Assembly: GCF_011516945.1 (NCBI RefSeq) | Contig: NZ_WOTH01000010.1 | Location: 1-64,000, forward strand | Length of the DNA stretch: 64,000 bases | Source: Acetobacter estunensis | GTDB lineage: Bacteria > Pseudomonadota > Alphaproteobacteria > Acetobacterales > Acetobacteraceae | Reading direction: 5' to 3' | Part shown: one piece after another, positions 1,990 through 31,702 of the stretch | Layout of the letters: each line of letters opens with the position of its first letter | How positions within the stretch are numbered: position 1 is the first letter of the stretch | The notes under the pieces: generated by a model | Database searches by the model: none | The model's input: only the letters and a program-made list of their open reading frames with translations | What the model was told of the DNA's origin: nothing | Program-made: the position numbers and the translations under genes

Positions 1990-4047
1990 ATGGGCGTGTT
2001 TGATCATACCAAACCGGGAGTGCGGAAAGCCGAAGCTTCCATCCTGCGACTTGACCTGATGAGCGTGATGTCCGTGCAGATGCTCGACGGCACGTCACTG
2101 ACACCGACCGGGGCCAAGACCCGCGGGCTTCTGGCCATACTCGCCCTCTCCGATCGCCGCCCCGTCACCCGCAGGGCTCTGGCGGGGCTCCTGTGGAGCA
2201 TGCGCTCTGAGGAACAGGCCCGCGCTTCTTTGCGGCAGGAAATTCATCGCCTGACCGAAGCGCTCAGCCCCTTAGGCACCGACATTCTCGATGTGCAGCG
2301 TCACGCCCTGTCGCTCAAACCCGTGCTGACCAGCGTGGACGCCGAGCGTTACCTCAACGCCACTCCCTCCAACATCCTGCGCCTGCCCGAAACCGACACC
2401 CTGCTGCTGTCGGACCTGGACGGCGTCGATCCGGCTCTGGACGAATGGTTGGCACATCAGCGCGACCGCCTGCGTCATCATCTGATTTCCACCCTCGAAC
2501 AGGCCCAGAGCACTCTTTCGGACCCCGATCAGCGCCTGTCCGCCGCCAACCGGCTCCTGCACGTCGATCGCCTGAACGAGACGGGATGGCGCACTCTCCT
2601 GCGGGAACTGGCACGCCGCAACGACAGCAGCACGGCCCTGCTGACGGCGGAACAGTGTCTCACCACCTTCCGCGACAGCCTGCACACTGAGCCGAGCGCT
2701 GCCACCATGGCAGTTATTTCCGAAGTGCGGCATCTGGCCAATACACTTGCCCACGACATGGACGCGCCTCCAACGGCAAGAGCGTCAACGACCACAACCC
2801 TTCCCGCAGCGCGTGATATCGCCAGCGTCGCCTTTACGTTTCCCGATCGGACGACACCTCTGTTCCCTCTGGTGGAGTCGGTGTTCGATCAGGCAACCGC
2901 CGGCCTCGCACGATTCGGTTTTCTTGCCCTGTTTCCGCCCTCTCCCAAGGAATCCGAGGATCAGGGCGGACCGCATCACACCCATGACTACCAGATCGAA
3001 CTGAAGATCAGACCCACCACCCCGCCTCCAAGCAAGGCGCCTTCCCCCTCTGCCCGGCTGGTGGTGCGTGTGACGGACCAGCGTCGGGACAATCTCATCA
3101 TCTGGGCCGAACGGTTCACAATCACGGCTGACAATGCCGACGCGATCGGAGCTTTTCTCGTCACGGAAATTGCCTGGCGTATTGCCATGGCCGAAGCCCG
3201 CAACGCCGCCAGTCGCCCGGCCCATGAACTCTCGCCCCTCGAACTTGGCCTGCGCGCTTTCGCGCTGACCAGCCGCAACGATCCTGCCGTGCTGCCGCAA
3301 GCCCGTGACATGCTGTCCGATGCGCTGGATCACCTTCCTGAAAATCCGTTCCTGCTTCTGATCGCGGCGCTCAACGGGCTCCTCAGTTCAACGGAGATCC
3401 CCTCTCCCCAACAGGCGGCTGAAGCACGCACACGCGGAATCGAAGCAGCCCGCAAACTGACGCAACTCCTGCCGGAAACGGTGATCGGTCGCCTGCTTCT
3501 CGCACGCCTTCAGATGGACGATCCGTCCACATTGACGTTCGGACGCCAGCTTCTCATCGAGACGCTTCCGTCCTGCTCTGGCAGCGGCATCGGTGTCATC
3601 GTCGATGCCTATGCAACCCTGCTGGCAGGACAGGCGCAAAAAGCTGCCCGAACTCTTCTGGCCTTCCGTCAGCAGCATCCAACCCACCCTTTCTTCGATC
3701 TGCTGGACACGGACTTCATGCTGATCTTTCTCCTTGGCGGAGAGTTCAAGGAGGCGGCCGAGCGGGGACGCACATCACTCAGTGCAGCTCCAACACGGGT
3801 ATCCATGCTCGTTCTGCACGCCGCCACACTCGTTGCCCTGCGGGAAAAAGGACACAAAGATGTCAGTGACGAGCTGGACGCCACACGCGCTCAACTCAGT
3901 CGTCTTGCCCCGACACTTTCTCCGGAAGACGTCCTCGCGCATCATGCCACTCTTCCATCTCCTTTGGCCGAAACGCTGCTCTCCCTGCTGCGACAGGCAG
4001 GGCTGCCCGCCTCGCCGGAACAGAAAGGGGAGCAATGCTTGGCGTGA
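1990..4047 (+). CDS. BTAD/SARP-like transcriptional regulator with C-terminal repeats
   Basis: 685 residues from this ATG. The N-terminal 110 residues look like the winged-helix DNA-binding domain of SARP/OmpR-type activators (TRGLLAILALS, then a basic helix around LRQEIHRL). A bacterial transcriptional activation (BTAD) helical domain follows to about residue 240. The middle (about 270-420) resembles the TolB-like segment often joined to such regulators, and the last 250 residues are helical and TPR-like. I chose the ATG at 1990 because AGGGA lies a few bases upstream; in-frame ATGs at 1849 and 1972 would add 47 or 6 residues of non-conserved sequence. The target is unknown. It stands alone between the terminated Hint gene and a lipoprotein gene. 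Confidence 0.75.
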   Translation: MGVFDHTKPGVRKAEASILRLDLMSVMSVQMLDGTSLTPTGAKTRGLLAILALSDRRPVTRRALAGLLWSMRSEEQARASLRQEIHRLTEALSPLGTDILDVQRHALSLKPVLTSVDAERYLNATPSNILRLPETDTLLLSDLDGVDPALDEWLAHQRDRLRHHLISTLEQAQSTLSDPDQRLSAANRLLHVDRLNETGWRTLLRELARRNDSSTALLTAEQCLTTFRDSLHTEPSAATMAVISEVRHLANTLAHDMDAPPTARASTTTTLPAARDIASVAFTFPDRTTPLFPLVESVFDQATAGLARFGFLALFPPSPKESEDQGGPHHTHDYQIELKIRPTTPPPSKAPSPSARLVVRVTDQRRDNLIIWAERFTITADNADAIGAFLVTEIAWRIAMAEARNAASRPAHELSPLELGLRAFALTSRNDPAVLPQARDMLSDALDHLPENPFLLLIAALNGLLSSTEIPSPQQAAEARTRGIEAARKLTQLLPETVIGRLLLARLQMDDPSTLTFGRQLLIETLPSCSGSGIGVIVDAYATLLAGQAQKAARTLLAFRQQHPTHPFFDLLDTDFMLIFLLGGEFKEAAERGRTSLSAAPTRVSMLVLHAATLVALREKGHKDVSDELDATRAQLSRLAPTLSPEDVLAHHATLPSPLAETLLSLLRQAGLPASPEQKGEQCLA

Positions 4048-4189
4048 TCCGGCCAACGGGATATGAAGGCAGCGGAGAGAGGGGGTGTTACGCCCCGGTC
4101 CGCCGCGCTCTGGTCCACACGCTCTGAATCGGGAAACGTGTGAACGGGGATGACGGCTCGCAGGTCTTGCACAGGAGACGCAGCAGCAT

Positions 4190-4705
4190 ATGGTCACTTC
4201 CCGCGTTCGCAGGCGCTTCCGGGGCACCGGTCGCCTCTCCGGCCTGACATCGGCAGCACTGGCTGCCCTGCTGCTTGCCGCATGTTCCAGCCATGACAAG
4301 GCCAGCGAACTCACCGCGCCACGCAATCACCTCCTGAGCGAAGATCGCAGCGCCACCGGAGGCGACGACCAGCTTTCCGGCGGCGTGAACGCCTATTTGT
4401 GGCGCGGCGCGCTCGATACGCTGTCCTTCATGCCGATCGCCAGCGCGGATGCGGTGGGCGGGTTCATCCTGACCGACTGGTACACACCGCCGGCTGACCG
4501 TGACGAGCGCTTCAAGATCACAGCCTATATTCTCGACCGGCGACTGCGTTCGGATGCGCTGCGTCTGACCGTGTTCCGTCAGGTCCGTGAAGGCAACGAG
4601 TGGGTCGATATGCCGCCCGCCGCCAACACGGCCTCCGACATCACCACCAAGGTTCTCACCCGCGCCCGTCAGCTTCGCGCCGAGAACGGCAACCGCGATA
4701 ACTGA
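4190..4705 (+). CDS. DUF3576 lipoprotein
   Basis: 171 residues. A basic N-terminus and a hydrophobic stretch end in a lipobox (LLAAC), so this is probably a lipoprotein anchored in the envelope. The rest matches the alphaproteobacterial DUF3576 type: NAYLWRGALDTLSFMP, then GGFILTDWY, then a region of alternating beta strands. AGGAG lies upstream of the ATG. It precedes leuS and lptE on the same strand with a 78-base gap, so it may be transcribed with them. Biochemical function is unknown; the lptE neighbourhood only loosely suggests an outer-membrane role. Confidence 0.85.
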   Translation: MVTSRVRRRFRGTGRLSGLTSAALAALLLAACSSHDKASELTAPRNHLLSEDRSATGGDDQLSGGVNAYLWRGALDTLSFMPIASADAVGGFILTDWYTPPADRDERFKITAYILDRRLRSDALRLTVFRQVREGNEWVDMPPAANTASDITTKVLTRARQLRAENGNRDN

Positions 4706-4783
4706 TCGGTTGCCCTCCGCTTCCTCTTTCTTGTCGGCAGCCCTCACAGGCTGCCCTTTCGCCTTTTCGGACTGCCCAGATTC

Positions 4784-7402
4784 ATGACCGCTGACGCTTC
4801 TCCCGCCCATTACGATTTCCATTCCGTCGAGCGCCGCTGGCAGGAGGAATGGGCGAAGAACAGCGTCTTTACCGTGCCGGACGTGCCCCCCGCCGACCGG
4901 CCGAAATATTACGTGCTGGAGATGTTCCCTTATCCCTCCGGCCAGTTGCACATGGGGCATGTGCGCAACTACGCGCTGGGCGATGTCGTGGCCCGCTACA
5001 AGCGCGCACGCGGCTTTTCCGTGCTGCACCCGATGGGCTGGGACGCGTTCGGCCTGCCCGCTGAAAACGCGGCCCGCGAACGCGGCGTGCATCCGAAGGA
5101 ATGGACGCTCGCCAACATCGCCGCCATGCGCGAAACCCTCAAGCGGCTGGGCTTCTCCCTGAACTGGGACCGCGAAATCGCCACCTGCCTGCCGGACTAT
5201 TACGGCAAACAGCAGAAAATCTTCCTCGATTTCCTTGCCGCCGGTCTGGTGGATCGCCGCGAATCCTGGGTGAACTGGGATCCGGTGGACCACACCGTGC
5301 TGGCCAACGAGCAGGTGGTGGACGGCCGTGGCTGGCGCTCCGGCGCACTGATCGAGAAAAAGAAGCTCTCGCAGTGGTTCCTGAAAATCACCCAGTTCGC
5401 ACCGGATCTGCTGGACGGTCTGAAAACGCTGGAGCGCTGGCCCGAGCGTGTGCGCGTGATGCAGGAACGCTGGATCGGTCGCTCCGAAGGTGCGCGTCTG
5501 CGCTTCCCGCTGGCGCATCCGCCGGAAGGGCTGGACGCGGAACTGAACTCCGTCGAGGTCTTCACCACACGTCCCGACACACTGTTTGGCATGTCTTTCC
5601 TCGCGATTGCGCCCGACCATCCGCTGGCGGCTAAGGTGGCGGAAACCAATGCGGACGCCGCCGAATTCATCGCGGAATGTCGCCGTCTCGGCACGTCGGT
5701 CGAAGCAGTGGAAACCGCCGAGAAACGCGGCTTCGACACCGGGTTGAAAGTCGCGCATCCGTTCCTGCCGGACGCCGCCTTCCCTGTGTGGATCGCCAAT
5801 TTCGTGCTGATGGATTACGGCACGGGCGCACTGTTCGGCTGCCCGTCGGGCGATCAGCGCGATCTCGATTTTGCGCGCAAATACAACCTGCCCGTCACGC
5901 CGGTCGTGCTGCCTGCCGGTGAGACCGCCGACACCTACCGCATCATGGACAAGGCGTGGACGGGCGACGGCACCATGATCAATTCCGGCTTTCTCGACGG
6001 GCTGTCCTGCGCAGACGCCCGCAAGGAAGCCATCGCGCGCCTTGAGGGACTCGGCGTCGGCTCCGGCGTGGTCAACTGGCGTCTGCGGGATTGGGGTGTG
6101 TCCCGTCAGCGCTACTGGGGCTGCCCGATCCCCATCATCCATTGCAAAAGCTGCGGCGCCGTGCCCGTGCCGGACGAACAGCTTCCGGTGGAACTGCCCG
6201 ACGACGTTACGTTCGATCGTCCGGGTAACCCGCTCGACCATCATCCCACGTGGAAACACGTGGCCTGCCCGAAATGCGGCAAGCCCGCCACGCGCGAGAC
6301 GGACACGTTCGACACGTTCGTGGACAGCTCATGGTATTTCGCGCGCTTCACAGCCCCACACACCGCCACACCCACGAACAAGGCGGCCGCTGACGGCTGG
6401 CTGGCCGTGGACCAGTATATTGGCGGCATCGAGCACGCGATCCTGCATCTGCTCTACGCACGCTTCTTCACCAAGGCGATGAAGCAGACCGGCTATCTGG
6501 ATGTGAGCGAGCCGTTCGCGGGCCTGTTCACGCAGGGCATGGTCAACCACGAGAGCTACAAGGACCAAAACGGCAACTGGCTCTATCCTGAAGAAGTGGA
6601 GCGCAGCGGCACCAGCGCCACACACCGCGAAACCGGTACGCCCGTGACCATCGGGCGTGTCGAGAAAATGTCCAAGTCCAAGCGCAACACGGTGGCCCCT
6701 TCCGCCATCATCGACCGCTTCGGAGCCGACACGGCGCGCTGGTTTGTGCTGTCCGACAGCCCGCCGGAACGCGACATGGAGTGGACGGAGGCCGGTGTGG
6801 CCGGTGCCGGACGTTTCGTGCAGCGCCTGTTCCGCATTGTCACGCAGGTCGCCGCTTCCTGCCCGGTCGATGCTGCCCCCGCCGCCGAAATGCCCGAGGC
6901 CGTGGACACGTTGCGCCGCACGACACACCGCACCATCGTGGCCGTGACGGAAGCGCTCGAAGCCTTCGCTGTGAATGTGGCCGTGGCCCGCCTGCATGAA
7001 CTGACCTCGGCCCTCGCGGACGGTGAACGCGCCGCCGATCAGCCCGGCATGGCGTTCGCCCGCCGTGAAGCCGCCCGCACGCTCTGCCTGCTGAGCGCGC
7101 CCATGATGCCGCATCTGGCCGAGGAACTGTTCGCCATCATCGCACCGGGCGCCGGTATGGTGGTGGCGCAGGCGTGGCCGGAAGCCGACCCTGCCCTGCT
7201 GACCGTCACCCGCGTGAAACTGGCTGTGCAGATCATGGGCAAGCTGCGCGGCACGATCGAAGCGGAGCCGGACGAGGACGCGGCCACTGTCATCGCGCGC
7301 GCGGAAGCGGAGCCGAACGTGGCGCGACTGCTGGAAGGGCAGAAGATCGTCAAGCGCATCCATGTGCCCAACCGCATCGTCAACTTCGTGGTGGCACGCT
7401 GA
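4784..7402 (+). CDS. leuS: Leucyl-tRNA synthetase
   Basis: 872 residues, the normal bacterial length. This class I synthetase charges tRNA-Leu with leucine. The HIGH signature appears as HMGH within the [10 protein letters not shown] block near residue 55, the KMSKS loop as EKMSKSKRN near residue 625, and a CP1 editing domain lies between them. Two Cys pairs (CKSC and CPKC, about residues 455-505) fit the zinc-binding insertion. The anticodon-binding C-terminus is complete. The stop is separated from the lptE start by one base, so the two are likely co-translated. Confidence 0.98.
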
Positions 7403-27317: not shown

Positions 27318-27818
27318 ATGAAAGATGTTTCTGTGCAGCAACGCTTGCCGTCCACGGAGAATGTGACCTCCCAGCACTTCCACGCGGGATGCAGCGCCCG
27401 CAACGGCGCTGGTGTGCTCATTTTCGGGCCTCCCGGCGCGGGCAAGTCCGACCTGCTCCTGCGTCTGCTCGGCCGCGGCCACGACCTTGTCGCCGATGAC
27501 CGCGTGGAACTGACGGATGGAGTGGCCTGCGCGTCCGAGCCTCTGCGCGGACTGATCGAGGTGCGCGGATGGGGCATTGTCCAACGCGCCTATCTGCCGG
27601 CCGTCCGCGCTGTCCTCGCGGTCCATCTGGTTCCAGCGGACACGCCCATTTCCCGCATGCCGGAAGAAAACGCGCGCTGCCCTCTCACGGACCTTCCGCT
27701 GTTGCGTCTGCATGGCCTGCACGTCTCCGCGCCCGAGCGGGTGGACATCGCGCTGGACTGCCTCACGGGCCGAGCCCTTCTCCTGCCGCAAGGCTGCATG
27801 CCGGGTGACGATGGCTGA
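27318..27818 (+). CDS. hprK: HPr kinase/phosphorylase, short alphaproteobacterial type
   Basis: 166 residues, the catalytic domain alone, as is normal in alphaproteobacteria; Gram-positive HprK is about twice as long. The Walker A motif GPPGAGKS covers residues 37-44, LVADDRVEL is the catalytic Asp/second motif, and [13 protein letters not shown] is the HprK signature. It phosphorylates or dephosphorylates the regulatory Ser of HPr, here Ser54 of the HPr gene two genes downstream. It opens the run hprK-rapZ-EIIA-HPr-EI. Confidence 0.92.
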
Positions 27819-28018: not shown

Positions 28019-29026
28019 ATGGTGACACCTCAGATTTCCGATGACACGCCATCTCGGCACATTCTCCTTGTCACCGGCCTCTCGGGGGCTGGAAAATCCT
28101 CCATTCTGAGGATTCTGGAGGATCTGGGGCACGAGGTGATCGACAACCCGCCGCTGGGGATGCTTGATGAGATCGTGGCGCGGGGAGACCGCCCCATCGC
28201 CATCGGCGTGGACTCGCGCACCCGTGGGTTCGATGCCTCCGCCGTGCTGGAAGCCGTCAGCCGCCTGCGCCTCAATCCGCATCTGCGCGCCGAACTGCTC
28301 TACGCCACCGCCGATGAGAGCACGTTGCTGCGCCGCTACACCGCCACGCGCCGCCGCCACCCACTCGCTCCCCATGGCAGCGTGACGGAAGGCATTGACG
28401 CCGAGATTGCGCTGACCGCCCGATTACGCACCTGTGCCGACGTGCTGCTCGACACCACCGACCTCTCCGCCCCGGAGTTGCGCCGGGTGATCGAGACCCG
28501 CTTCGGCACATGGCACAACGGACCCGATGAGGGGCTGACGCTGGTGCTCATGTCATTTGCTTTCCCCTCCGGTCTGCCACGCGAAGCCGACATGGTGTTC
28601 GATGCGCGCTTCCTGAGAAATCCCTATTACGACCCCGCACTCGCCCCATTGACCGGCCTTGAGGGCACCGTGGCCGAGCATGTGGAAACCGACCCGGACT
28701 ATCAGCCCTTCCTCAACCAGATCCTGAAAATGCTGCATCTGGTCGTCCCGCGCTTCGTGCAGGAAGGCAAAAAATACGCCACCGTCGCCATCGGCTGTTC
28801 CGGCGGACGCCATCGCTCCGTCACACTGGTGGAAGATCTGGCCCACCGTCTGGCCAACCCCTTGGGTGGACTGGAAGGCGAAGGCCCGATCGCCGTGGTG
28901 CATCGCGAGCTTGCCCGTCAGGCGCACGGCGCAAACGCCGCATGGCGCTGGGCACGCCGCCCCGCCGACAGCGACACGGACACGACCCGACAGGTCAGCC
29001 CGGTCGCGGCACAAGGAAACGCATGA
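28019..29026 (+). CDS. rapZ: RNase adapter / nucleotide-binding protein RapZ
   Basis: 335 residues from the ATG at 28019. P-loop GLSGAGKSS at 20-28, the FGxWHNGPDEGLTLVLMSFAFPSGLP centre (short parts only) and the C-terminal AIGCSGGRHRSVTLVE block typical of RapZ. In enterobacteria RapZ controls the glucosamine-6-phosphate synthase pathway through small RNAs; the alphaproteobacterial role is unclear. A 52-residue upstream extension of the frame has no family match. The last 40 residues are Ala/Arg-rich. The 200-base gap after hprK holds no clear gene. Confidence 0.93.
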   Translation: MVTPQISDDTPSRHILLVTGLSGAGKSSILRILEDLGHEVIDNPPLGMLDEIVARGDRPIAIGVDSRTRGFDASAVLEAVSRLRLNPHLRAELLYATADESTLLRRYTATRRRHPLAPHGSVTEGIDAEIALTARLRTCADVLLDTTDLSAPELRRVIETRFGTWHNGPDEGLTLVLMSFAFPSGLPREADMVFDARFLRNPYYDPALAPLTGLEGTVAEHVETDPDYQPFLNQILKMLHLVVPRFVQEGKKYATVAIGCSGGRHRSVTLVEDLAHRLANPLGGLEGEGPIAVVHRELARQAHGANAAWRWARRPADSDTDTTRQVSPVAAQGNA

Positions 29027-29027
29027 C

Positions 29028-29540
29028 ATGATAGGCATTGTCCTGGTCACGCAGGGCGCGCTCGGGGAAGCCCTGCGCGAAACCATGGAACACGTCGTCG
29101 GCCCTCAGCACCGGCTCGCCACCGTTGCCGTCGGCGCGCACGACGATCTGTGCGCCCGTCGCCGGGAACTGGAACAGCGTGTGGCCGAAGTGGACGGCGG
29201 CGATGGCGTGATGCTGGTGACGGACATGTTCGGCAGCACACCCGCCAATCTGGCCGTCGCCATGACGCGCCCCGGCGAGATCGAAGTGCTGGGCGGCGCC
29301 AATTTGCCCATGCTGGTCAAGCTGGCCCAGCTCCGAGAAGACCACACGCTGGCGGAATGCACGCTGCTGGCCGAGCAGGCCGCGCACAAATACATCAACT
29401 GCGCCTCCCAGCTTCCCGCCCGCTGCCTTGAGGGCGCGCGCCGCTGCGCTGAGGAAGCGGCTTCAGGCCATGAAATCACACCCGTGCCACCGCGCCTTTC
29501 GGTCGCCCTGCCCGCGCTTGAAACGTGCAAGGGCCTGTAA
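29028..29540 (+). CDS. Mannose-type PTS EIIA, phospho-His replaced by Gln
   Basis: 170 residues. The fold is the EIIA-Man/ManX class: IGIVLVTQG at the N-terminus, MEHVVGPQ, GVMLVTDMFGSTPANLA and EIEVLGGANLPMLVKL. In the family the residue two before the Gly of the first motif is the His that receives phosphate from HPr (VTHG); here it is Gln9 (codon CAG). It lies in the usual slot between rapZ and HPr, starting one base after the rapZ stop and overlapping the HPr start (TAATG). The last 30 residues are an unusual extension. With the His absent, phosphotransfer by the normal route looks impossible, so a binding or signalling role is more likely. Confidence 0.88.
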   Translation: MIGIVLVTQGALGEALRETMEHVVGPQHRLATVAVGAHDDLCARRRELEQRVAEVDGGDGVMLVTDMFGSTPANLAVAMTRPGEIEVLGGANLPMLVKLAQLREDHTLAECTLLAEQAAHKYINCASQLPARCLEGARRCAEEAASGHEITPVPPRLSVALPALETCKGL

Positions 29541-29845
29541 TGGACGGCTCGCACGGCACGGCCCCGCTCACCCGCACTCTCACCATCGTCAACGCCAAGG
29601 GGTTGCACGCCCGGGCCTCGGCCAAGTTCGTGACCGAAGCCGAGAAGTGGAACGCCGACATCACCGTGGAACATGGTGGCGAAAGCGTGCCCGCCTGTTC
29701 CATCATGGGGCTGATGATGCTCGGCGCGGGGCATGGCGCCGATCTGACGCTTCACGCCACCGGTCCGCAGGCCGCGCAGGCGCTCGACGCGCTTGCGGCC
29801 CTCGTGAGCAGTGGCTTTGGGGAAGACGGACAGACTGCGGCGTAA
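29540..29845 (+). CDS. ptsH: Phosphocarrier protein HPr
   Basis: 101 residues. The catalytic His23 lies in GLHARASAKF and the regulatory Ser54 in ACSIMGLMML, the site HprK acts on. HPr carries phosphate from EI to EIIA proteins. It overlaps the EIIA stop by one base and is followed 21 bases on by ptsI. No EIIB/EIIC permease is in the window, which fits a regulatory, non-transporting PTS. Confidence 0.95.
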   Translation: MDGSHGTAPLTRTLTIVNAKGLHARASAKFVTEAEKWNADITVEHGGESVPACSIMGLMMLGAGHGADLTLHATGPQAAQALDALAALVSSGFGEDGQTAA

Positions 29846-29866: not shown

Positions 29867-31702
29867 ATGATCGAGCGGACACGGACGGACGGGCGACAGC
29901 ATTCCACCACTGAGGAAGCGACAGACCCGCACCTGACGAAAGGCCAGCCCATCGGCCCCGGGGTAGCCATCGGTCCGGCCTATATCGTCCGTGACGATCC
30001 CTCCCCCGAGCCGGAAATCCTCCGCAGCGAGCACACACCCGCGCAGGAAGCCGAGCGCTTTACCGAGGCCGTGAACCGCTCCATCGGGCAACTCGTCACC
30101 CTGCGCCGCCGCATCGAACGACTGCCCGAGGAAAGTCAGGTCGAAATCGGCCCGTTGCTGGAGGTCTATCGCCGGATGCTCGGCCCCTCGCGCCTCCAGC
30201 GCGAGGTCATGCGGCATATCGAGGACGGACTGACGGCGGAAGCCGCCGTTCATATCAGCACCGACGCCCTGCGCGAGCAGATGCTCGCCATGCTCGAAGG
30301 ACAGGAATCCGGCACGGACGAGGCCGCCGCCCTGCGCCGCCGCGCCGATGAGATCCGCGAGATCGGCCGTCGCCTGATCCGTAACCTCCTGCGCCGCGCC
30401 TATGTCTCGCTCTCCAAGGTGCCGGCGGGCTCCATCCTTATCAGCCGCACGCTCCAGCCCGCCGACGCCGCGCTGATCGACCCGTCGCGCATTGCCGCCG
30501 TGGTGACGGAGGATGGCGGCACCACCGGGCATTCCGCCATCATGCTGCGGGCATTGGGTATCCCCTCCGTCATGGGCGCGGAGGACATTCTCGACGGGCT
30601 GGAAACTGGCGCGACGCTGGTGGTGGACGGCAATGAAGGCACCGTCCGCATCATGCCCACGCCGACCGAACTGCGCCGCGCGCGGCGGCAGGTTACGGCC
30701 TATGCCCGCAAGCGGCAGGAACTGGGGCGGCTGCGACGTCTGACGTCACGTATGGCCAGCGGGGAGAAAATCTCGCTTCAGGCCAATATGGAACTGCCCG
30801 CCGAACTGCCGCTGGTCGCACAATCGGGTGCGGCGGGCATCGGACTGCTGCGCACCGAGTTCCTGTTCCTCAACGCCGAGACCCTGCCAGACGAAGACAC
30901 ACAGTTCGACATCTACGCCTCCGTCGTCTCCGCCATGGGCGCCGACCCGACAACCATCCGCGTGCTGGACTGGGGCGGCGAAAAGCCAAGCGAGGCGCTG
31001 GCCCGCATGAATGGCAATGGCGAGGAACCGGAGGAAAACCCGGCGCTCGGCTTGCGCGGGCTGCGGCTGCTGCTGGAACACCCGCACCTGCTGGAAACGC
31101 AGTTCTCCGCCATTCTTCGCGCCGCCGCCAAGGGGCCGGTGCGCGTGCTGCTGCCCATGGTCACCGTAGCGTCGGAGGTGATCGCCGCCCGCGAGATTTA
31201 TGAACGCGTGGCGCGGCGGCTCAAACGCAAAGGGGTGGAGACGGGCGATGCGCTGCCGCCACTGGGTATCATGATCGAGACGCCCGCCGCCGCCCTGACT
31301 GCGGGCGCGCTGGCGCAGCATGCGGATTTTCTGGCACTCGGCACCAACGATCTGACCATGTACACTACCGCCGCCGACCGCTCTTCCGCCGAGGTGGCGG
31401 CTCTGTGTGACCCACTGCACCCCGCCGTGCTGCGGATGATGGCCGAGACCATCACCGCCGGATTGGTGGAGCGGCGTCCAGTCTCGATCTGCGGCGAAAT
31501 GGCGGGCGATCCGAAGATGACGCCGCTGTTGATCGGCATGGGTTGCCGCGCGTTTTCCATGACGCCTTCCGCCGTGCCGCGTGTGAAACAGGTGGTGCGC
31601 GCTATGCGGCATGAGGACTGCCGCCAGTTGGCGCGGCGCGTGCTGGCGGAGACGGATGTGGGGGTTATTCGGGAGATGTTGGAAGAATTTAGCGAAAAAT
31701 AA
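29867..31702 (+). CDS. ptsI: PTS enzyme I (PEP-protein phosphotransferase)
   Basis: 611 residues, longer at the N-terminus than enterobacterial EI (about 575) and without a GAF domain, so it is PtsI rather than PtsP. It takes phosphate from PEP and passes it to HPr. The phospho-His is His222 in EDGGTTGHSAIML, and the PEP-binding C-terminal domain keeps GLLRTEFLFL, LALGTNDLTMYT and the catalytic Cys in SICGEMAGDP. The start at 29867 has no strong ribosome site; an inner start near LTKGQPIGPG is possible. It closes the operon and is followed by a hairpin. Confidence 0.95.
   Translation: MIERTRTDGRQHSTTEEATDPHLTKGQPIGPGVAIGPAYIVRDDPSPEPEILRSEHTPAQEAERFTEAVNRSIGQLVTLRRRIERLPEESQVEIGPLLEVYRRMLGPSRLQREVMRHIEDGLTAEAAVHISTDALREQMLAMLEGQESGTDEAAALRRRADEIREIGRRLIRNLLRRAYVSLSKVPAGSILISRTLQPADAALIDPSRIAAVVTEDGGTTGHSAIMLRALGIPSVMGAEDILDGLETGATLVVDGNEGTVRIMPTPTELRRARRQVTAYARKRQELGRLRRLTSRMASGEKISLQANMELPAELPLVAQSGAAGIGLLRTEFLFLNAETLPDEDTQFDIYASVVSAMGADPTTIRVLDWGGEKPSEALARMNGNGEEPEENPALGLRGLRLLLEHPHLLETQFSAILRAAAKGPVRVLLPMVTVASEVIAAREIYERVARRLKRKGVETGDALPPLGIMIETPAAALTAGALAQHADFLALGTNDLTMYTTAADRSSAEVAALCDPLHPAVLRMMAETITAGLVERRPVSICGEMAGDPKMTPLLIGMGCRAFSMTPSAVPRVKQVVRAMRHEDCRQLARRVLAETDVGVIREMLEEFSEK

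What the first reader, a model, noticed from the sequence alone, without database searches (positions are those of the whole stretch)
29028..29540. PTS EIIA lacking its phospho-accepting histidine
The sequence places CAG (Gln9) where the mannose-type EIIA family has the His that takes phosphate from HPr (VTQG instead of VTHG). The fold motifs, start, spacing and operon position are intact, and HprK, HPr (His23, Ser54) and EI (His222, Cys) all keep their catalytic residues. If real, the EI-HPr relay ends in a protein that cannot be phosphorylated at the usual site, so the pathway may signal through HPr or through EIIA binding alone.
Basis: partly seen in the sequence, partly recalled or inferred. 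Interest (0 to 1): 0.72.

Follow-up and report, generated by a model that had tools for sequence, protein, structure and literature searches.

The report
Phosphotransfer protein missing its phosphate-accepting histidine
One branch of vinegar bacteria (Acetobacter) has replaced the single amino acid that should receive phosphate in the last protein of a nutrient-sensing relay, yet keeps that protein and the rest of the relay, which suggests the protein now signals by binding alone.

Summary
Codon 9 of the mannose-type EIIA gene (29028-29540; codon at 29052-29054) is CAG, Gln, where the family has its phospho-accepting His. It is not a sequencing error: 14 of 14 Acetobacter genomes that carry the gene, and 9 of 9 named Acetobacter records, have Gln (CAG or CAA), while 126 of 126 EIIAs examined from other Acetobacteraceae have His. 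The change is clade-fixed and one event suffices. The rest of the pocket is kept, the gene is under purifying selection (dN/dS roughly 0.10, similar to or below HPr and EI), and no substitute His was gained. EI, HPr and HprK keep their catalytic residues and occur in the same 14 of 49 genomes as EIIA. Two other EIIA classes and the mannose-type EIIB were searched and not found in these 14 genomes; further EIIA classes and EIIC were not searched. So the relay has no recognised phospho-accepting EIIA. Most likely the protein is a permanently dephospho-like partner that signals by binding, with HPr the last phosphorylated carrier. No target and no biochemistry is shown. It is a new variant of the known incomplete alphaproteobacterial regulatory PTS.

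The parts
27318..27818 (+). hprK: short alphaproteobacterial-type HPr serine kinase, 166 aa
   Evidence: Pfam Hpr_kinase_C; P-loop [13 protein letters not shown] and EVRGWGI motifs kept; strong matches in the same 14 of 49 Acetobacter genomes as EIIA
28019..29026 (+). rapZ (start chosen near the beginning of the Pfam match; a longer ORF from 27863 is open)
   Evidence: Pfam RapZ N and C domains, NCBIfam RapZ equivalog above cut-off
29028..29540 (+). mannose-type EIIA (ptsM/manX-like), 170 aa, His9 replaced by Gln
29052..29054 (+). codon 9, CAG (Gln), at the position of the phospho-accepting His
   Evidence: CAG in 17 and CAA in 6 of 23 Acetobacter rows, own window included
29223..29249 (+). 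codons 66-74, D-M-F-G-S-T-P-A-N, active-site loop retained
   Evidence: Asp66, Gly69, Ser70, Thr71, Pro72, Asn74 in 23 of 23 Acetobacter rows
29538..29542 (+). TAATG: EIIA stop overlaps the HPr start by one base, likely translational coupling
29540..29845 (+). HPr, 101 aa, His23 and Ser54 kept
   Evidence: Pfam PTS-HPr
29867..31702 (+). Enzyme I, 611 aa, only the three EI domains found by Pfam (no GAF), His222 and Cys542 kept
   Evidence: TIGR01417 above cut-off

Best explanation
A mannose-type EIIA lost its phospho-accepting histidine, most simply once, in the ancestor of the PTS-bearing Acetobacter branch, and has been kept since as a fixed His-to-Gln form. Shown: the substitution, its fixation in all carriers found, a fold model of the normal family, an otherwise intact pocket, purifying selection, co-occurrence with EI, HPr and HprK, and absence of the other EIIA classes that were searched. 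Inferred: EI still phosphorylates HPr from PEP and HprK still phosphorylates HPr-Ser54, so HPr is the last phosphorylated carrier; EIIA cannot take phosphate at the usual place and stands permanently in a dephospho-like form (Gln could keep a hydrogen bond to Asp66). It acts by binding: constitutively to a target that dephospho-EIIA binds in relatives (the candidate I found in print is the 2-oxoglutarate dehydrogenase E1, SucA), and/or to HPr, whose phosphorylation state then decides how much EIIA is free. The output would be set by HPr, not by EIIA phosphorylation.
For: Gln9 in 14 of 14 Acetobacter genomes with the gene and in 9 of 9 named records, against His in 126 of 126 other rows. CAG (17 rows) and CAA (6 rows) both occur, so the codon has changed synonymously while Gln stayed. 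Of 42 sites conserved at 95% or more in the other rows, only H9Q, L64V and G119A are replaced in every Acetobacter row. Median dN/dS of EIIA about 0.10 in the Gln clade, against 0.13 in one His-bearing genus (g42); in the Gln clade HPr 0.11-0.12, EI 0.14, RapZ 0.11, HprK 0.23. Strong matches of EI, HPr and HprK fall in exactly the same 14 of 49 genomes. The model matches E. coli IIA-Man 1pdo, Z 19.7, rmsd 2.4 over 127 residues. Gln rows form one clade with site 9 masked, support 100/100. In Brucella the homologue is phosphorylated by NPr in vitro, is predicted to use His9, binds SucA, and its dephospho form is proposed to be the binding form (PMC2937029).
Against: No binding partner, expression or phosphorylation data were found for Acetobacter. 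SucA's N-terminal domain is in 49 of 49 Acetobacter genomes whether or not they have this PTS, so this does not single SucA out. The cluster is absent from 35 of 49 genomes, so it is dispensable in the genus. Synonymous sites are near saturation (pS about 0.62; 2 of 45 EIIA pairs fully saturated), so the dN/dS values are rough. Not every EIIA class was searched (lactose and glucitol types were not), nor any EIIC.
Confidence: 0.6

Rival explanations
1. EIIA still takes phosphate, but at another residue (His22, Asp66, Ser70/Thr71 or a cysteine), so it remains a working phosphorelay end point.
For: His22 is in 23 of 23 Acetobacter and 126 of 126 other rows; Asp66, Ser70, Thr71 are retained in 23 of 23; EI and HPr keep their active residues.
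Against: No new His, Cys, Asp, Glu, Ser, Lys or Tyr is fixed in the Gln clade where fewer than 20% of relatives have it; of the residue types tested only Gln9, Thr19, Gly89 and Arg139 are (residues 1-140), so Thr19 is the one new hydroxyl. His22 is ancestral, lies near the end of helix 12-24 in the model, and aligns with Met in E. coli IIA-Man. Its distance from the pocket was not measured.
Confidence: 0.12
2. A relay in decay: loss of His9 is an early step toward loss of the whole PTS, as in the other Acetobacter, and EIIA is held only because its stop codon overlaps or abuts the HPr start.
For: The cluster is missing in 35 of 49 Acetobacter genomes; an HPr start overlaps or abuts the EIIA stop in the window and in 12 of 12 other Acetobacter loci scored; the stem of the Gln clade is long, 0.51 changes per column.
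Against: dN/dS about 0.10 and no internal stop in any of the 14 matches; EIIA is about as constrained as HPr and EI; pocket residues are kept. Translational coupling would not preserve the protein sequence. In a PPDK tree the 14 PTS-positive and 18 of the 35 PTS-negative genomes are each one side of a branch, so no repeated loss among Gln9 carriers is seen in that sample.
Confidence: 0.12
3. EIIA has become an HPr-binding sink or reader: it docks HPr (or HPr-His-P, which it cannot discharge) and so buffers or reports the HPr state, with no other target.
For: HPr and EIIA are neighbours, overlapping or abutting, and occur in the same 14 genomes; the pocket that meets HPr in the family is kept.
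Against: No interface data; only 3 of 40 conserved HPr sites are replaced in all 14 Acetobacter rows read, too few to argue for a remodelled interface.
Confidence: 0.16

Closest known systems
Incomplete regulatory PTS of alphaproteobacteria: hprK - ptsM/manX - ptsO cluster of Brucella, Sinorhizobium, Agrobacterium, Rhizobium (PMC2937029: abstract, sections 6, 15, 19 and passages; PMC3665714 and PMC13104625: passages)
   Same: Short HprK, mannose-type EIIA and HPr/NPr genes in one cluster in the same order; no mannose-type EIIB found here; same EIIA fold family.
   Different: There EIIA has His9 (predicted site) and the Brucella protein takes phosphate from NPr in vitro; EIIA-Ntr (PtsN) is a second acceptor; EI is the GAF-bearing EI-Ntr (PtsP). 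Here His9 is Gln, PtsN was not found, no GAF domain was found in EI, and EI and rapZ lie in the same gene row.
E. coli IIA-Man (ManX IIA domain, PDB 1pdo)
   Same: Fold (Z 19.7 over 127 residues); Gln9 aligns with its His and Asp66 with its Asp (usually numbered His10 and Asp67, numbering and roles recalled).
   Different: 27% identity; no mannose-type IIB found in Acetobacter; the His replaced.
   Same: EIIA-HPr order, pocket, HPr His and Ser, EI His.
   Different: His9 in 126 of 126 rows; the EI residue before the active His is Asp in 25 of 26 rows there and Gly in 13 of 13 Acetobacter rows.

Membership tests
PF03610 mannose-type PTS EIIA | Sequence profile above the curated cut-off | tested here: met
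   69.5 bits against 21.4
PF03610 mannose-type PTS EIIA | IIA-Man fold | tested here: met
   AlphaFold2 model, mean pLDDT 80.2 (95-97 in blocks over residues 1-60, under 50 for 148-170); 1pdo Z 19.7, rmsd 2.4, 127 aligned
PF03610 mannose-type PTS EIIA | Phospho-accepting His at the end of the first strand | tested here: not met
   Gln in 23 of 23 Acetobacter rows; His in 126 of 126 other rows. It is a sequence and fold member, not a catalytic member
PF03610 mannose-type PTS EIIA | Partner Asp and phosphate-loop residues | tested here: met
   Asp66, Gly69, Ser70, Thr71, Pro72, Asn74 in 23 of 23 rows; their roles are recalled from E. coli IIA-Man
PF03610 mannose-type PTS EIIA | Accepts phosphate from HPr | not testable with these tools
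   Needs purified proteins
NCBIfam TIGR00824 / AgaF EIIA models | Score over the curated cut-off | tested here: not met
   49.4 of 98.35 bits and 70.1 of 130 bits
Alphaproteobacterial incomplete regulatory PTS | hprK, mannose-type EIIA and HPr in one cluster | tested here: met
   strong matches of all three in the same 14 of 49 Acetobacter genomes
Alphaproteobacterial incomplete regulatory PTS | No EIIB/EIIC permease | tested here: inconclusive
   Mannose-type EIIB in 0 of 49 genomes; other EIIB and all EIIC families not searched
Alphaproteobacterial incomplete regulatory PTS | EIIA-Ntr (PtsN) as second terminal acceptor | tested here: not met
   PF00359 has no match in G000 or in 48 of 49 genomes; the one match lies in an 852-aa ORF that also matches HPr and EI
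Alphaproteobacterial incomplete regulatory PTS | EI of the GAF-bearing PtsP type | tested here: not met
   Pfam finds only the three EI domains in the 611-aa EI

The most novel reading that the evidence does not exclude
A naturally truncated PTS relay in which HPr is the last phosphorylated carrier and its former acceptor EIIA has been re-used, under selection, as a permanently dephospho-like binding protein: a natural version of the non-phosphorylatable EIIA mutants made in laboratories, fixed in a bacterial lineage through its speciation.
Probability: 0.4. Interest if true: 0.75.

Novelty: new variant of a known kind. Interest (0 to 1): 0.58.

Why it matters
What the mannose-type EIIA does in alphaproteobacteria without a sugar permease is largely open; in Brucella its gene could not be deleted and its dephospho form is proposed to bind SucA (PMC2937029). 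A lineage that has fixed a His-to-Gln form separates the binding role from the phosphate-acceptor role without engineering, so comparing Gln9 and His9 species or alleles in a harmless food bacterium tests directly which role matters. It also suggests that EI and HPr can be kept by selection with no recognised phospho-accepting EIIA.

Tried and rejected
Sequencing or assembly error: rejected, same residue in 14 of 14 genomes and 9 of 9 named records. Wrong start or frame: rejected, the MIG start lies one base after the rapZ stop and the N-terminus aligns from residue 1 in the relatives read. Pseudogene: rejected as sole explanation (no internal stops in the 14 matches, dN/dS about 0.10). A second EIIA paralogue carrying the His: PF03610 has one match in the genome. 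PtsN, glucose-type EIIA and mannose-type EIIB elsewhere: not found in the 14 carriers; lactose- and glucitol-type EIIA and EIIC were not searched (cap reached). Compensating new His: none. Co-occurrence of SucA with the PTS: uninformative, 49 of 49 genomes. Concerted change beside the EI and HPr active His (EI D221G, HPr A27S): suggestive only; one His9-bearing relative (L015) also has the Gly. Same Gln elsewhere: the CAR pattern hit 1 of 385 genomes of the class, our own (how many of the 385 carry an EIIA was not determined), and 4 of 397 in the family, all Acetobacter. The pattern is not fully sensitive (its CAY version finds 26 of 26 loci L015-L040 but 80 of 100 fetched stretches) and tests Gln only, so other replacements elsewhere are not excluded. 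The order of His9 loss and PTS loss in the genus is not settled: the PPDK tree has no outgroup and samples 18 of 35 PTS-negative genomes. Distances in the AlphaFold model (for example His22 to Gln9) were not measured; I looked for coordinates in the Python box and found none. Literature: the listings (two returned no paper) showed none on an EIIA lacking its His in Acetobacter; that covers only the open-licence library held.

Full report
What is there. The window lies in an Acetobacter genome; its EIIA is 99% identical to that of A. estunensis AV380. The gene row on the + strand is hprK (27318-27818), rapZ (28019-29026), EIIA (29028-29540), HPr (29540-29845) and EI (29867-31702). EIIA starts one base after the rapZ stop and its own stop overlaps the HPr start (TAATG). 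Codon 9 is CAG: MIGIVLVTQGALG.

Is it real? A protein search of named genomes, whose search words did not include residue 9, gave nine Acetobacter records (A. estunensis, oeni, musti, fallax, nitrogenifigens, sicerae, sacchari and two 'sp.'), and all nine have Gln9. A search of the genus found the gene in 14 of 49 genomes, 12 of 46 among those of good completeness and low contamination, and all 14 have Gln9. The codon is CAG in 17 and CAA in 6 of the 23 Acetobacter rows (these are the 14 genomes, own window included, plus the 9 named records, and the two sets overlap in species). In 397 genomes of the family, 343 have a match to the protein, 4 of them Acetobacter. I read residue 9 in 126 of the other 339: the best-scoring 26 (L015-L040) and 100 further ones from the printed list. 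All 126 have His. These are the closer relatives, not a random sample. A DNA pattern for the Gln form hit 4 of 397 family genomes, all Acetobacter, and 1 of 385 genomes of the class, our own.

History. In an EIIA tree of 85 different rows with site 9 masked (11 Gln, 74 His; every second one of the 100 fetched stretches was used), the Gln rows form one clade with support 100/100 on a stem of 0.51 changes per column: one event is enough. In a PPDK tree of 32 genomes (14 with the cluster; 18 of the 35 without; three more were dropped because their PPDK fragment was short and 14 were not sampled), each set is one side of a branch with support 100/100. As most of the sampled family has the gene, the other Acetobacter lineage most likely lost the cluster; the tree has no outgroup, so the order of events is open.

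Is it kept? Median dN/dS among ten Gln-clade rows is 0.10 for EIIA and 0.11 for HPr; among the seven with long loci EIIA 0.10, HPr 0.12, EI 0.14, RapZ 0.11, HprK 0.23; in six rows of one His-bearing genus EIIA is 0.13 and HPr 0.10. Synonymous differences are about 0.62 per site in the Gln clade, so the values are rough. Of 42 sites conserved at 95% or more in the other rows, three are replaced in every Acetobacter row: H9Q, L64V, G119A; residue 120, Arg in 123 of 126, is His in 19 of 23. The rest of the pocket is invariant. Strong matches of EI, HPr and HprK fall in exactly the same 14 of 49 genomes as EIIA. Weaker matches lie outside these: for EI a PPDK-like ORF in most genomes and one further ORF in G397; for HprK short stretches around the P-loop in six genomes, not identified; and in G117 an 852-aa ORF matching EIIA (fructose type), HPr and EI. 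All 14 carriers keep EI His and Cys, HPr His and Ser, and the HprK P-loop and signature.

Is there another acceptor? In the window's own genome PF03610 matches once. PF00359 (PtsN/fructose EIIA) matches in 1 of 49 Acetobacter genomes, G117, which lacks this cluster; PF00358 (glucose EIIA) in 0 of 49; PF03830 (mannose-type EIIB) in 0 of 49. The built-in controls gave matches in named genomes in each of these family searches. Lactose- and glucitol-type EIIA and EIIC were not searched. Within EIIA, over residues 1-146, the only His present in all 23 Acetobacter rows is His22, which is also in 126 of 126 His9 rows and lies near the end of helix 12-24; E. coli IIA-Man has Met there. So no substitute His was gained; Thr19 is the only newly fixed hydroxyl residue.

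Structure. The AlphaFold2 model (29 aligned sequences, mean pLDDT 80.2, tail 148-170 below 50) has the IIA-Man fold: E. coli 1pdo Z 19.7, rmsd 2.4 over 127 residues; Enterococcus 3ipr Z 20.2. In the sequence alignment Gln9 falls on the His and Asp66 on the Asp of E. coli IIA-Man (their catalytic roles are recalled).

How it may work. In Brucella the homologous EIIA (PtsM) takes phosphate from NPr in vitro, is predicted to use His9, binds SucA, and its dephospho form is proposed to inhibit 2-oxoglutarate dehydrogenase; ptsM could not be deleted (PMC2937029: abstract, sections 6, 15, 19 and passages). A 2026 review says ManX and PtsN appear to be the terminal acceptors of PtsO in alphaproteobacteria and that the unphosphorylated form predominates in known PtsN interactions (PMC13104625, passages). 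In the Acetobacter carriers both are gone as acceptors: PtsN was not found and EIIA has Gln9. The simplest reading is that EI and HPr keep a PEP- and HprK-dependent state on HPr, while EIIA is held in a dephospho-like form and acts by binding. That EI and HPr are still active, and what EIIA binds, are inferences. SucA's N-terminal domain is present in 49 of 49 Acetobacter genomes, with and without the PTS, so it stays a candidate only.

Verdict. Observation confirmed and extended to a clade; interpretation partly supported. The protein is a member of the EIIA-man family by sequence and fold but not by its catalytic residue, in a new variant of the incomplete regulatory PTS.

Noticed in passing
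L065, L095, L096 (genome G117, contig 180, about 3715-6177): One Acetobacter genome without the native cluster has an 852-aa ORF that matches PTS_EIIA_2, HPr and EI, apparently a fused fructose-type EIIA-HPr-EI protein, perhaps acquired.
   Followed up: no
L026 and L033 (unnamed family genomes G219 and G181, same genus g56): The Gly after the phospho-accepting His is Phe or Cys in two His-bearing EIIAs (THF, THC); 24 of the 26 rows L015-L040 have Gly.
   Followed up: no
window 29867-31702 (EI residue 221) and 29540-29845 (HPr residue 27): Clade-specific changes near the active His: EI Asp221 to Gly in 13 of 13 Acetobacter rows read (Asp in 25 of 26 others) and HPr Ala27 to Ser in 14 of 14 (Ala in 26 of 26 others).
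   Followed up: partly
window 29028-29540, residue 22: His22 of EIIA is invariant in all 149 Acetobacteraceae rows read but aligns with Met in E. coli IIA-Man; its role is unknown.
   Followed up: partly
window 29028-29540, residues 119-120: A Gly-Arg pair conserved in the family and also seen in E. coli IIA-Man is Ala-His or Ala-Arg in Acetobacter (Gly119 to Ala in 23 of 23 rows).
   Followed up: partly
genus Acetobacter: EIIA, HPr, EI and HprK are present together in 14 and absent together from 35 of 49 species genomes.
   Followed up: partly
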